Translations under genes and position numbers: made by a program
Origin: Actinomycetota bacterium
GTDB lineage: Bacteria > Actinomycetota > Thermoleophilia > Solirubrobacterales > Solirubrobacteraceae
Length of the DNA stretch: 33,649 nt
Direction: 5' to 3'
Assembly (NCBI GenBank): GCA_009699245.1
Contig: WLOQ01000011.1
Span: 1-33,649 of the forward strand
Shown: piece by piece, positions 20,426 to 24,379 of the stretch
Position numbering within the stretch: the stretch's first letter is position 1
Layout of the letters: the number at the start of each line of letters is the position of its first letter
Notes under the pieces: generated by a model
Told to the model about the DNA's origin: nothing
Seen by the model: the letters and a program-made list of their open reading frames with translations, nothing else
Databases searched by the model: none

Positions 20426-21631
20426 ATGACGCAGCGCGATGCCATCTTCGCGTTCGTCGTCGCCTTCGCGGCCGCGGCGCTCCTCACGCCGCTCGCCGGC
20501 CGCTTCGCGACGCGGGTGGGAGCGATCGACCAGCCGCGTGACCGGGGCCTCGCCACGCGCGAGACGCCACTGCTCGGCGGGCTCGCGATGTTCGCGGCGC
20601 TCGTCATCGCCGGCCTCGCGTTCCTGAACCTCGACGGCGCCGTCGGCGATCGCATGGTCGGCGTGCTCTGGGGCGCAGCGCTGATCACGCTCGTGGGCGC
20701 GCTCGACGACCGCTTCGACCTGCCGCCGGTCGTGAAGTTCGCGGGCCAGGTGCTCGCGGCCGTCATTCCCGTCGCCGCCGGGGTCAAGGTCGACAACCTG
20801 ACGCTCCCCTTCGTCGGCGCGCTCGATCTCGGATCGGCGGGCGGCCCGATCACCGTCATCGGCCTCGTCTTCGTCATGAACGTCGTGAACTTCTCCGACG
20901 GCATCGACGGGCTCGCCGCGGGCGTCTGCGCGATCGCGGCCCTGACCTTCGCCGTGATCGCCTTTGACCTCGACCGCGGCACGGCGGGGACGCTCGCCGC
21001 GATCACGGCCGGCCTTGCGATGGGCTTCCTCGTCCACAACTTTCCGCCGGCCCGGATCTTCATGGGGGACTGCGGGTCGAATCTGCTCGGGCTGCTGCTC
21101 GGGTGCGTCGCCGTGGAGGGCGCCGTCAAGACGCAGGCGGTGCTCGCGCTCGTCTTTCCGCTGCTCGTGCTGGCGGTGCCGTTCCTCGACACGACCTTCG
21201 TCGTGCTCAAGCGGATGAAGTACCGGCGGCCGGTTTATGTGGCCGATCAGAACCACTTCCATCATCGGCTCAGCCGGATCGGCTTCAGCCAGCGGCGCAC
21301 GGTGCTCTACCTCTACGCCTGGACGGTGTGCGTCGGTGCGTTCGCGCTCGCCCTGCGGTTCGTGCCGTACTCCAACGAGGGCGGCACGCTGAACCTCGGC
21401 TGGGCGCTCGTGATGGTCGCGATCGGCGTGATCGTGCTCGCCGCGAGCGCGTACCTCGTCTACACCCTCGAGATCCTCAAGGTGCGCCGCCTCTCCGAGC
21501 GGCAGCTGCGCGGACGCGATCCGCTCGCGACGGTCGCCGACATCGACGCCGACGCCGCGCTGCGCCTGGAGACCGGGCAGTTCGACGCCGTGCGACTCGA
21601 AGACGTCGAGGCCTCGCGCCCTCAGCCGTAG
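20426..21631 (+). CDS. WecA/TagO-like undecaprenyl-phosphate N-acetylhexosamine-1-P transferase
   Basis: A 401-residue polytopic membrane enzyme of the MraY/WecA superfamily with about 11 hydrophobic segments. DDRFD at 94-98, NFSDGIDGLA at 155-164, FMGDCGSN and the DQNHFHHRL cytoplasmic loop are the conserved catalytic and Mg-binding stretches. The His-rich loop points to the WecA/TagO/Rv1302 branch rather than MraY. It would move a HexNAc-1-phosphate from its UDP form to undecaprenyl or decaprenyl phosphate, starting cell-wall linkage-unit or polysaccharide synthesis. The last 60 residues are a soluble tail. Mycobacterial wecA also lies just upstream of the atp operon. Its 3' end overlaps the convergent TetR gene by 10 bases. 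Confidence 0.9.
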   Translation: MTQRDAIFAFVVAFAAAALLTPLAGRFATRVGAIDQPRDRGLATRETPLLGGLAMFAALVIAGLAFLNLDGAVGDRMVGVLWGAALITLVGALDDRFDLPPVVKFAGQVLAAVIPVAAGVKVDNLTLPFVGALDLGSAGGPITVIGLVFVMNVVNFSDGIDGLAAGVCAIAALTFAVIAFDLDRGTAGTLAAITAGLAMGFLVHNFPPARIFMGDCGSNLLGLLLGCVAVEGAVKTQAVLALVFPLLVLAVPFLDTTFVVLKRMKYRRPVYVADQNHFHHRLSRIGFSQRRTVLYLYAWTVCVGAFALALRFVPYSNEGGTLNLGWALVMVAIGVIVLAASAYLVYTLEILKVRRLSERQLRGRDPLATVADIDADAALRLETGQFDAVRLEDVEASRPQP

Positions 21632-22233
21632 ATCGCCCGCGTCCAGATCGCGGCGAGCGCCTCGACGAGGGCGTCGTCGTCGACCGCGGGCTGGGGGCCC
21701 ACCTGCTCGTAGAGCGTGCGCTCGGTCATCCAGGTGAGCGCGACGGCGGTGGCATGCGGGTCGGCGCAGGTCGACGCGCCGCGCTGACGCTCGAGCTCGA
21801 TCCGGCGCTCGGCCGCGGCGGCGAGCTGCCCGACCGTCTCGCGCCAGAGCTGCGCGATCGCGTCGTCATACGCGGCGACCTCGACGATCGCGCGGACCAG
21901 CACCGCATGCTCGCGGAAGAGGTCGCGGGTACCGCGCAGCGCGCTGCGCAGCTGCGCCTGCGGATCTCCATCGCCTTCGAGCCAGCGCGCCGCCTGCTCG
22001 TGCACGAGGGCGTTGACCTCGCCCGTCAGCGCGCGAAGCAGGTCGCGCTTGTCGGCGAAGTGGAAGTAGAACGCGGTCCGCGAGATGCCCGCGCGCCCGG
22101 CGATCCGCTCGACGGCGAGGTCGGAGAACGCAGCGCCCTCGGCGAGGAGCTCCTCGGTTGCGCGCAGCACGGCCGCTTGGGCCGCCGCGCGCTTCGCGGT
22201 GGCCGGTGCGGCCCGCCGTTCCCCGGTCGACAT
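21622..22233 (-). CDS. TetR-family transcriptional regulator
   Basis: A 203-residue regulator. The N-terminal helix-turn-helix (residues about 20-65) reads FSDLAVERIAGRAGISRTAF, followed by FHFADKRDLLRAL, typical of TetR. The C-terminal ligand domain resembles EthR-like or lipid-responsive members (MTERTLYEQVG near the end), but no ligand can be named. ATG at 22233 was chosen over a GTG at 22251, which would sit almost against the divergent cupin gene. Start codons of the two divergent genes are only about 20 bases apart, so the regulator probably controls the cupin gene and itself. Confidence 0.85.
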   Translation of the reverse strand: MSTGERRAAPATAKRAAAQAAVLRATEELLAEGAAFSDLAVERIAGRAGISRTAFYFHFADKRDLLRALTGEVNALVHEQAARWLEGDGDPQAQLRSALRGTRDLFREHAVLVRAIVEVAAYDDAIAQLWRETVGQLAAAAERRIELERQRGASTCADPHATAVALTWMTERTLYEQVGPQPAVDDDALVEALAAIWTRAIYG

Positions 22234-22253
22234 CGCCTGCGAGTATCCCACCC

Positions 22254-22622
22254 GTGTTCCTCTCCGACCTTGACGAGCTCGAGCCGTTCACGACGCTCGA
22301 CGGCTCGACGATCCGCGAAATCGCAGGCCCGGCCTGGACGCCGGCCCAGCGCCAGAGCCTCGCCGAGGCGACCATTCCAGTCGGTGGAGCAACCGCCGCC
22401 CACTACCACGTCGAGACCGAAGAGCTCTATTTCTTCACGGCGGGGAAGGGACGGCTGCGCATCGGCGACGCGGAGCGCGACGTGCACGCAGGCCACTGCG
22501 CGGTGATCGAGCCCGGTGTCCCGCACAAGCTCTGGAACACCGGCGACGTGCCGCTCGTCCTGCTCTGTTGCTGCGCGCCGGCCTACCGGCACGAGGACAC
22601 GGTGCTGCTCGAGCCCTCGTGA
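22254..22622 (+). CDS. Small cupin-domain protein
   Basis: A 122-residue single-domain cupin. Motif 1 is AAHYHVETEELYFFTAGKG (two His and a Glu as metal ligands) and motif 2 is HAGHCAVIEPGVPHKLWN (third His). Small stand-alone cupins include sugar isomerases, dioxygenases and metal-storage proteins; nothing here distinguishes them. The cysteine cluster LCCCAP near the C-terminus is unusual. GTG at 22254 is preferred because the frame upstream runs into the divergent regulator gene. Very close divergent pairing with TetR suggests control by that regulator. The stop touches the repeat region upstream of the atp operon. Confidence 0.8.
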   Translation: MFLSDLDELEPFTTLDGSTIREIAGPAWTPAQRQSLAEATIPVGGATAAHYHVETEELYFFTAGKGRLRIGDAERDVHAGHCAVIEPGVPHKLWNTGDVPLVLLCCCAPAYRHEDTVLLEPS

Positions 22623-22627
22623 CACCC

Positions 22628-22658
22628 GTCACGAAGTGTCACAAAGGAGTCACAAAGT
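22628..22658 (+). repeat. Three tandem GTCACRAAGK repeats upstream of the atp operon
   Basis: Copies at 22628-22637, 22638-22647 and 22649-22658 start 10 and 11 bases apart, close to one helical turn, so they face the same side of DNA. An inverted GTGAC lies at 22619-22623. They end 12 bases before a -10-like TAGTGT. Probable binding sites for a regulator of ATP synthase expression. Confidence 0.55.
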
Positions 22659-22670
22659 CCGCCGATGCGA

Positions 22671-22676
22671 TAGTGT
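22671..22676 (+). promoter_or_regulatory. Probable -10 hexamer TAGTGT of the atp operon
   Basis: TAGTGT is the best TANNNT match between the cupin gene and atpI. A -35 box is not evident; the tandem repeats take its place, which suggests dependence on an activator. The start site would be about 22683, giving a leader of about 110 bases. Confidence 0.4.
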
Positions 22677-22696
22677 GCCGCGCTGCCGTCGTTGTG

Positions 22697-22726
22697 CTCC
22701 CCGCATCCGCGGGAGAGCTGCCTCTC
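22697..22726 (+). promoter_or_regulatory. Mutually exclusive hairpins in the atp operon leader
   Basis: One hairpin pairs 22697-22704 with 22709-22715 (one bulged base, loop ATCC). A second pairs GAGAG 22713-22717 with CTCTC 22722-22726. They share 22713-22715, so only one can form fully. The rest of the leader to 22794 is C-rich with no Shine-Dalgarno sequence seen. Confidence 0.3.
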
Positions 22727-22794
22727 TCAGACCCTGGGCTCCGGCCCGCCGGGTTCAACGCTTCGCCCGAAACCCACCTTCACGCCTGCCTCTG

Positions 22795-23163
22795 ATGCCC
22801 GTCCTCCGCCACATCGATCTCGCCGTGCTCGCCCTCGCGCTGCCGGTGTTCCTCGTTGCCGGCTGGCCGATGCTCGGGTACGGCGCCGGCGCAGTCGCCT
22901 GGCTCGGCCAGCGCGCGCTCCAGCACTGGACGACCGCGAAGGCCGACGCGACCGACGACCCGAAGAAGGTCGCCGGCATCATGACCGGCTCGCTGATCGG
23001 CCGCGGCTGGCTCGCCGCGCTGGTGATCTTCGGCGCCGGGATGATCGAGAACGACGCCGGTCTCGCCGCCGCCGTCCTCGTGGTCGTCCTCTTCACCGTG
23101 TATTTCACCGCGTCCATGATTCTTCGCCCGTTCGAGCGCACGACCCCCCGGCAGCTCTCCTGA
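22795..23163 (+). CDS. AtpI-like membrane protein at head of ATP synthase operon
   Basis: A 122-residue protein with four hydrophobic segments (about 8-25, 28-42, 65-83 and 88-110). AtpI-like proteins are poorly conserved; the assignment rests on size, topology and position just before atpB. In other bacteria AtpI helps assemble the c-ring or move magnesium. The stretch TTAKADATDDPKKVAG between segments two and three is a charged loop. ATG at 22795 gives the first membrane helix directly after the start. Its stop overlaps the atpB start by one base (TGATG). Confidence 0.65.
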   Translation: MPVLRHIDLAVLALALPVFLVAGWPMLGYGAGAVAWLGQRALQHWTTAKADATDDPKKVAGIMTGSLIGRGWLAALVIFGAGMIENDAGLAAAVLVVVLFTVYFTASMILRPFERTTPRQLS

Positions 23164-24071
23164 TGCGCTCACGCCTGCTCCTCTTCCTCATGCCGTTCGC
23201 CGCGCTGCTCGCGTCACCCGCGGGCGCGTTCGCGCTGAACATCAACGAGGAGTACAAGCCGCAGAACGAGTTCAAGCTCGACCCCTGGATCGAGATCAAG
23301 CTCGGGCCGATCGACTTCTCGATCCACAAGGCCGTCTTCTACGTCGCCGTGGCCTGCATCCTCACGATCATCACGATGGTGATGGTCGCGCGGCGCATGA
23401 CCCCGACGGGCCGCCCGAGCCGCGTTCAGGTCGTCGTCGAGGGCTACTACGGCCTGATCGAGACCATCACCAAGGGCAACATGAGCGGCGCGATGGTCCG
23501 CCGCTGGTTCCCGTTCCTGGCGACCGTCTTCCTCTTCATCTGGTTCTCGAACATGCTCGGGTACCTGCCGCTCCCGACCAACACGGAGCACAAGGTCGAC
23601 ATCTTCGGCGTCGCGGTGCCGTCGCTCGCGCTCTTCGCCGCCACGGCGAACATTTCGGTGCCGCTCGTCCTCACGCTGATCGTCGTCTTCGCCTACCACA
23701 TCGAGGGCATCAAGGCGAAGGGCCCGATCCGCTACCTCAGGGGCTGGGTCCCCGCCGGCGTCGAGGGCCCCGCAGCCGGGCCGATCTTCGTCATCGAGGC
23801 GATCTCGCACTTCGTGCGCATCATCAGCCTCTCGGTGCGACTGTTCGCGAACATCCTCGCGGGCCACCTCCTCATCCTCTTCATGGGCGGCGGCCTGGTC
23901 GTCCTGCTGAACCTCGCGATCGTCGGATCCGTCGTCCTGGGCGCCATCACCGGCGTCATGGCCGTCGCGTTCTTCATCTTCGAGGTGGGCCTCGTCGCCA
24001 CCCTTCAGGCCTTCATCTTCACCACACTTGCAGCGATCTATCTTGGCGGCGCGGTCGCCGAGGAACACTAA
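23163..24071 (+). CDS. atpB: F1Fo ATP synthase subunit a
   Basis: A 302-residue subunit a. The essential arginine of the proton path is Arg226 in SLSVRLFANILAGH; FLFIWFSNMLGYLPLP and the C-terminal FEVGLVATLQAFIFTTL are typical. It forms the two half-channels beside the c-ring in the membrane. The first 24 residues (MRSRLLLFLMPFAALLASPA, then AFA) look like a cleavable signal peptide, followed by about 25 polar residues before the first conserved helix. ATG overlaps the stop of the upstream gene by one base. The next gene, atpE, follows after 14 bases containing GGAG. Confidence 0.96.
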   Translation: MRSRLLLFLMPFAALLASPAGAFALNINEEYKPQNEFKLDPWIEIKLGPIDFSIHKAVFYVAVACILTIITMVMVARRMTPTGRPSRVQVVVEGYYGLIETITKGNMSGAMVRRWFPFLATVFLFIWFSNMLGYLPLPTNTEHKVDIFGVAVPSLALFAATANISVPLVLTLIVVFAYHIEGIKAKGPIRYLRGWVPAGVEGPAAGPIFVIEAISHFVRIISLSVRLFANILAGHLLILFMGGGLVVLLNLAIVGSVVLGAITGVMAVAFFIFEVGLVATLQAFIFTTLAAIYLGGAVAEEH

Positions 24072-24085: not shown

Positions 24086-24379
24086 GTGGATCTGCATCTC
24101 ATCAGCGAGTTCGCCCAGTCGGGCGTGACCACCGAGGTCGCCGGGGAGTACGGGCGCAAGGCCGGTAAGGCCATTGCACTCGGCATCGGCGCCGGTCTCG
24201 GCACCATCGGCCCGGGCGTCGGCGTGGGTTACATCTTCGGCAAGGTCATCGAGTCAGTGACCCGCCAGCCGGAGATGAAGGACGAGATCACCTCGATTCA
24301 GTGGCTGGGCTTCGCCCTCACCGAGGCAATCGTCTTCTACGCCTTCATCTTCGGCCTGATCGCCTTCTTCCTCGGCTAG
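24086..24379 (+). CDS. atpE: F1Fo ATP synthase subunit c
   Basis: A 97-residue two-helix hairpin. Helix 1 has the glycine repeat GIGAGLGTIGPGVGVG, the cytoplasmic loop is RQPE (60-63), and helix 2 carries the ion-binding Glu80 (FALTEAIVFYAF). The residue after Glu is Ala and the Gln and Ser/Thr ligands of sodium-type rings are absent, so proton coupling is expected. About 20 polar residues precede helix 1, making it somewhat longer than E. coli AtpE. Start is GTG. Confidence 0.96.
   Translation: MDLHLISEFAQSGVTTEVAGEYGRKAGKAIALGIGAGLGTIGPGVGVGYIFGKVIESVTRQPEMKDEITSIQWLGFALTEAIVFYAFIFGLIAFFLG

What the first reader, a model, noticed from the sequence alone, without database searches (positions are those of the whole stretch)
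22619..22676. Three helically phased GTCACRAAGK repeats upstream of the ATP synthase operon
Near-identical 10-base direct repeats start at 22628, 22638 and 22649 with an inverted GTGAC at 22619, ending 12 bases before a TAGTGT hexamer. They take the place of a -35 box. Equal facing on the helix is typical of cooperative activator or repressor sites. Control of atp operons at this level is little described in Thermoleophilia, and the nearby TetR gene is a possible but unproven binder.
Basis: seen in the sequence. Interest (0 to 1): 0.52.

Follow-up and report, generated by a model that had tools for sequence, protein, structure and literature searches.

The report
Conserved repeat box at ATP synthase promoter
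A set of short DNA repeats sits where a control protein would grip the promoter of the ATP synthase genes; it is kept in many related soil and freshwater bacteria and is found almost nowhere else in their genomes, but the protein that reads it is not known.

Summary
The repeats are real. GTCACRAAG starts at 22628, 22638 and 22649, an inverted GTGAC starts at 22619, and TAGTGT at 22671-22676 follows 12 bases after the last 10-mer. In four genus relatives the conserved block covers almost exactly 22618-22677 and falls to background on both sides. The order-wide core is a 21-bp pair, TGTCACAAAG-N-YGTYACAAAG, with an 11-bp period. Of 299 genomes of the class, 35 carry it 0.45-1.0 kb upstream of atpB; only 24 further matches occur in the sample. 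A -10-like TAnnnT lies 12-15 nt downstream in 25 of 29 aligned sites. This matches the architecture of OmpR/PhoB-family response-regulator boxes (MtrA, PhoP, WalR, PhoB), placed over the -35 region. The upstream GTGRC-N4-GYYAC part is separable: nine genus relatives keep it and lose the pair. It resembles a Crp-type site. TetR is not supported: the nearest relative has the box without that gene beside it. No binder is shown. My first candidate regulator lacks a close orthologue in 5 of 22 box-bearing genomes. Verdict: a genuine, previously undescribed cis-element of a known kind; mechanism inferred.

The parts
22619..22632 (.). Imperfect-palindrome module GTGAC-ACCC-GTCAC (fits GTG-N6-GNCAC, Crp-like, motif recalled); its right half is repeat 1
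   Evidence: Sequence. GTGRC at -19 in 8 of 29 aligned sites, GYCAC at -10 in 9 of 29, no other offset above 2. Kept in 9 genus relatives that lost repeats 2-3.
22628..22636 (+). Repeat 1, GTCACGAAG
22638..22646 (+). Repeat 2, GTCACAAAG (10 bp after repeat 1)
22649..22657 (+). Repeat 3, GTCACAAAG (11 bp after repeat 2)
22637..22657 (+). Order-wide core box TGTCACAAAGGAGTCACAAAG, proposed response-regulator dimer site
   Evidence: 35 of 299 class genomes have a <=2-mismatch match upstream of atpB; 29 aligned sites
22671..22676 (+). TAGTGT, putative -10 hexamer, 13 nt after repeat 3
   Evidence: TAnnnT 12-15 nt after the core in 25 of 29 sites, 16 of them at 13
22795..23163 (+). atpI-like first gene of the atp operon (hydrophobic protein)
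   Evidence: no Pfam family over cut-off; position before atpB
23163..24071 (+). atpB (F1Fo ATP synthase subunit a)
   Evidence: PF00119, 5.4e-49
24086..24379 (+). atpE (subunit c)
   Evidence: PF00137, 1.9e-12
21622..22251 (-). TetR-family gene (EthR_C type), neighbour, not supported as binder

Best explanation
The core pair (22637-22657) is a binding box for a tandem dimer of an OmpR/PhoB-family winged-helix response regulator. It overlaps the -35 region of the atp promoter and most likely activates transcription from the -10 at 22671 in the class II manner of PhoB. In this lineage repeat 1 extends the array to three units; repeat 1 also forms half of an upstream palindromic module that may take a second regulator. 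Shown: the repeats, their spacing, conservation, -10 placement and near-exclusive link to atp. Inferred: binder family, activation, the exact regulator, the signal.
For: 11-bp direct repeats of TGTCACA-type units match described boxes: M. tuberculosis MtrA, GTCACAgcg in 9-nt units spaced by 2 (PMC13189361 and PMC6265350 passages); PhoP, TCACAGC-N4 x2, with tri- and tetra-repeats bound more tightly (PMC4832192 abstract, passages and two sections); WalR, TGTWAH-N5-TGTWAH (PMC4168254 passages). Position is fixed before a -10. The -35 match is poor: no sigma-70 promoter found by the scan. The genome has 9 OmpR-type effector domains. One PrrA/PhoP-like gene (L046) had an orthologue in all 11 box-bearing genomes, own included, whose effector genes I read; of PhoP's base-contacting residues it keeps Asn212 and Glu215. 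Precedent: OmpR binds the atp promoter in Klebsiella (passages); PrrAB represses atp genes in M. smegmatis (passages).
Against: No binding data. RR boxes usually occur at many promoters, but this one is nearly private to atp, and none of the 9 own-genome effector loci carries a site. The WalR/RegX3-like candidate L043 has no close match (E <= 1e-80) in 5 of 22 box-bearing genomes, and its recognition helix is essentially the same in genomes with intact and decayed boxes. Spacing is 10 then 11 bp, not strictly 11. In L061-L063 the box is conserved but no TAnnnT lies at 12-15 nt. The L046 result leans on a list truncated to best-scoring domains.
Confidence: 0.55

Rival explanations
1. The important element is the upstream palindrome (GTGAC-N4-GTCAC): a Crp/GlxR-like cAMP-receptor site that activates atp from about -57, with the downstream repeats secondary.
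For: Fits GTG-N6-GNCAC (recalled Streptomyces Crp motif; my search for it found no paper). GlxR activates the atp operon of C. glutamicum (PMC7026483 passages, citing Toyoda 2011). The own genome has one HTH_Crp_2 protein over cut-off. The module survives in 9 relatives that lost repeats 2-3. L006 carries a second GTGACACCAGTCACGA about 25 bp upstream.
Against: GTGRC is at the fixed place in only 8 of 29 sites, whereas the core pair is what is kept across families. L059 and L081 keep repeat 1 without the inverted half. The nine-locus set was anchored with a pattern for this very module.
Confidence: 0.2
2. A core promoter variant: repeat 3 is an unusual -35 read by the housekeeping sigma factor, and the repetition is incidental.
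For: In many relatives the hexamer is TTGTTA (4 of 6 to TTGACA) at about 18 nt from TAnnnT.
Against: The second unit 11 bp upstream has no -35 role, yet its T, G, T, A, C and the A at position 7 are invariant in 29 of 29 sites. These sites were chosen by score, so counts inside the core are inflated. The same sequence is rare at other promoters.
Confidence: 0.12
3. A DNA-binding protein outside the response-regulator family, perhaps dedicated to atp, reads the repeats.
For: One near-perfect site per genome suits a dedicated regulator better than a global response regulator.
Against: Head-to-tail 11-bp repeats are typical of OmpR/PhoB effectors; among the five window neighbours sought, none is a regulator constantly beside atp in the relatives read.
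Confidence: 0.1
4. The neighbouring TetR protein binds the repeats.
For: TetR lies between GT4 and the box in the window and in Conexibacter loci L064, L065, L068.
Against: Absent beside the box in the nearest relative L051, also L081 and others; present beside decayed boxes (L057, L058, L012). Direct repeats are unusual for TetR (recalled).
Confidence: 0.03

Closest known systems
MtrA box (M. tuberculosis; Streptomyces variant)
   Same: GTCACA-type units, 9 nt spaced by 2, 11-bp period
   Different: MtrA boxes occur at many cell-division and envelope promoters; here the site is nearly private to atp. No own effector gene passes NCBIfam's MtrA cut-off of 300 bits; the best is L043 at 240.
PhoP box of M. 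tuberculosis (TCACAGC-N4-TCACAGC)
   Same: TCACA core, 11-bp period, tri-repeats bound; own PrrA/PhoP-like proteins L044 and L046
   Different: Units end AAA, not AGC; first spacing is 10 bp
WalR/VicR box (TGTWAH-N5-TGTWAH)
   Same: Unit and spacing as in TGTCAC-N5-TGTTAC; the L043 effector domain is closest to WalR in the PDB
   Different: C or T, not A or T, at position 4; L043 not found in 5 of 22 box-bearing genomes
Pho box / PhoB class II activation (recalled)
   Same: Direct repeats about 10-12 bp upstream of a -10, standing in for the -35
   Different: No phosphate genes linked to the box here
Known atp-operon regulators: GlxR (C. glutamicum), PrrAB (M. smegmatis), OmpR (Klebsiella), SigH (C. 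glutamicum)
   Same: Transcriptional control of the same operon (SigH from the abstract listed)
   Different: Other lineages; the Klebsiella OmpR site is AT-rich and unlike this one

Membership tests
OmpR/PhoB-family response-regulator box | Head-to-tail repeats of a 5-7 bp motif with 10-11 bp period | tested here: met
   Period 10 and 11 in the window; the 11-bp pair in 29 aligned sites
OmpR/PhoB-family response-regulator box | Overlaps or abuts the -35 at a fixed distance from a -10 | tested here: met
   TAnnnT at 12-15 nt in 25 of 29 sites; start site itself not measured
OmpR/PhoB-family response-regulator box | Bound by a PF00486 protein | not testable with these tools
   Nine PF00486 domains exist; no binding assay possible
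OmpR/PhoB-family response-regulator box | Candidate regulator present wherever the box is present | tested here: inconclusive
   L043: 17 of 22, not met; L046: 11 of 11 genomes read, from a truncated list
MtrA regulon | MtrA orthologue by curated cut-off | tested here: not met
   Best 240.3 bits against 300
MtrA regulon | Many sites per genome | tested here: not met
   One strong site in the own genome; four others only at 3 mismatches
Crp/GlxR site (upstream module) | GTG-N6-GNCAC-type palindrome (motif recalled) | tested here: met
   GTG-ACACCC-GTCAC in the window; both halves in place in 7 of 29 sites, right half GCCAC in several
Crp/GlxR site (upstream module) | Bound by a Crp homologue with cAMP | not testable with these tools
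   One homologue over cut-off
TetR operator | Regulator gene kept next to the operator | tested here: not met
   Missing beside the box in L051

The most novel reading that the evidence does not exclude
ATP synthase in Solirubrobacterales has its own dedicated switch: a regulator whose only strong genomic target is the atp promoter, joined in some lineages by a second, separable palindromic input, giving a two-input control of ATP synthase level that has been gained and lost in modules.
Probability: 0.27. Interest if true: 0.62.

Novelty: new member of a known kind. Interest (0 to 1): 0.45.

Why it matters
How bacteria set the amount of ATP synthase at the level of transcription is little described outside a few model species. 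A box this conserved, at one operon, in a lineage with cultured members (Conexibacter, Paraconexibacter) makes the question testable with a short DNA bait. It also gives a natural experiment: nine genus relatives have lost the core pair and kept the rest.

Tried and rejected
TetR as binder: rejected on neighbourhood.

L043 (WalR/RegX3-like) as binder: first favourite from its effector domain; weakened because 5 of 22 box-bearing genomes lack a close match and its recognition helix does not differ between intact-box and decayed-box genomes.

Autoregulation: no core site at 8 bits or more in any of the 9 effector-gene loci.

Regulon: the relaxed own-genome search gave only four 3-mismatch places, which score 12.6 bits at most against 28.9 or more for atp sites. 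An exact TGTYAC-N5-TGTYAC-NA search of 11 genomes gave 8 hits, 6 at atp and 2 in G016 before related ORFs with hydrophobic stretches.

RNA reading: no Rfam family in the window; the strand does not fold better than shuffles, z 0.01 (DNA parameters).

Faults: the atpI query was out of frame by two bases, so its Pfam miss and its tblastn rows are not used; the right frame was read. Rows dropped: of 60 loci scored, 29 with at least 15 of 18 and non-duplicate were aligned (two duplicates removed); the rest scored 14 or less. Choosing sites by score inflates conservation inside the core but not at the -10 or the flanks. In 400 shuffles of one 1,100-nt stretch the best score was 14. Shuffles were first-order Markov samples.

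Other literature: one search gave only a search listing for PhoB; led to the WalR paper; one search added nothing beyond PMC6898941.

Full report
What is there. The window is contig C3 of a 1.95 Mb genome. Its nearest relative with a record title is L051, titled only 'Actinomycetota bacterium' (AtpB 95% identical); the next ones are titled Solirubrobacteraceae. Between the cupin ORF (stop 22620-22622) and atpI (22795) lie GTGAC (22619), GTCACGAAG (22628), GTCACAAAG (22638), GTCACAAAG (22649) and TAGTGT (22671). The motif GTCACRAAG occurs three times in the window against 0.31 expected, all here. As an unspecified triple repeat the array alone is not decisive: 32 of 300 shuffled windows hold one.

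Conservation. Aligned without gaps on repeat 2, four genus relatives (L051, L052, L053, L006) match the window at 6-10 of 10 bases per bin from 20 bases before to 40 bases after, and mostly 0-5 of 10 beyond; L051 stays similar for about 30 more bases downstream. That block is almost exactly the reported span. Beyond the genus the kept part is the 21-bp pair. The pattern TGTYACRAAGNYGTYACAAAG with up to two mismatches gave 14 hits in 12 of 41 relatives, 12 of the 14 upstream of atpB on the same strand, with no hit for the reversed pattern. In 299 genomes of the class it gave 59 hits: 35 in 35 genomes lie 449-1010 bases upstream of atpB; 12 lie elsewhere; 12 are in genomes whose AtpB place was not listed or not found. 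The reversed pattern gave 3 hits. By my reading of the table the 35 are 27 of 59 in family f1 and 8 of 13 in f2; 0 of 28 in f3, 0 of 3 in f4, and none placed at atp among 196 outside the order. The 24 other hits exceed the 3 control hits, so some may be real further targets or codon-driven matches. One (L096) is a four-unit 11-bp array just before an ORF whose start reads like RecA (identity recalled, not searched).

Anatomy. In 29 aligned sites T, G, T, A, C and the A at position 7 of the first unit, and A, C, A, A of the second, are invariant; information drops beside the core and rises again only at the -10. TAnnnT follows the core by 12-15 nt in 25 of 29 (16 at 13); the four without are L061-L063 and L026. 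Repeat 1 (GYCAC, 10 bp before repeat 2) is in place in 9 of 29 and the inverted GTGRC in 8 of 29, 7 with both. Nine loci of small-genome relatives keep GTGGCAGSCGWTACGA and the GATGC...TAC -10 context but not repeats 2-3 (these loci were anchored on the module itself). So the feature looks composite: an upstream palindromic module that includes repeat 1, and a direct-repeat pair at the -35.

How it probably works. The unit and spacing fit boxes of OmpR/PhoB-family response regulators: MtrA, PhoP, which also binds tri-repeats, and WalR. With the pair over the -35 and a poor -35 match, class II activation is the simplest reading; repression is not excluded. Nine such effector domains are in the genome. 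L043 is WalR/RegX3-like; L044 and L046 are closest to PrrA and PhoP; L045 and L042 to RegX3. L043 fails a presence test in 5 of 22 box-bearing genomes: G025, G140, G166, G172, G204 (strict threshold, and the congener G028 just passes at 5.8e-84). L046 orthologues were found in all 11 box-bearing genomes whose effector genes I read, own included, but also in seven with a decayed box, and the list was truncated. I therefore name no binder; L046-type is a slight favourite. PrrAB control of atp genes in M. smegmatis is a suggestive precedent, though there it represses.

Rivals. A Crp-type site explains the upstream module well: GlxR activates atp in C. glutamicum and a Crp homologue is present. 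It does not explain the order-wide pair. TetR is not coupled to the box in either direction. A sigma-factor-only reading does not explain the second unit.

Known or new. Control of atp operons by response regulators is known elsewhere: Klebsiella OmpR, PrrAB. I found no paper on this box or on atp control in Thermoleophilia in searches (open-access PMC only; listings seen). So: a new member of a known kind, unusual in being nearly private to one operon.

Noticed in passing
22680-22794; L052, L053, L064, L065, L067, L068, L074: Most relatives read have a short hydrophobic ORF between the box and atpI, weakly like ATPase_gene1/AtpZ (PF09527, 2.6e-5 in L067, just under cut-off; 0.12 in L064). The window and L051 lack it: the box sits directly before atpI.
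   Followed up: partly
L096:1490-1540 (G040:C33:58313): Four head-to-tail GTSAC units with 11-bp period, also an inverted TCCGTGAC/GTCACGGA pair, just upstream of an ORF that begins like RecA.
   Followed up: partly
L187, L191 (G016:C135:4523, G016:C239:710): Two copies of TGTCACAAGCTTGTTACAATGTGA before related ORFs with hydrophobic stretches, in one 5%-contaminated genome: a possible second target of the same regulator.
   Followed up: partly
L006, upstream of its box: A second palindrome GTGACACCAGTCACGA about 25 bp upstream of the first, hinting at module duplication.
   Followed up: no
L061, L062, L063: Core pair intact but no TAnnnT at the usual place; TGATAGAAC lies about 24-26 nt away. 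Two box-bearing genomes whose core sequences match L061 and L062 (G166, G140) also lack a close L043 match.
   Followed up: no
L073, L075, L079: Shortened variant with a 10-bp period (such as TTGTCACAAGTTGTCAC), followed by GGTACTGT or TGTACTGT, upstream of atp.
   Followed up: no
L057 record title: The record titled 'Bifidobacterium breve isolate ZH-03apr19-287' carries a Solirubrobacterales-like atp locus, so the title looks mislabelled.
   Followed up: no
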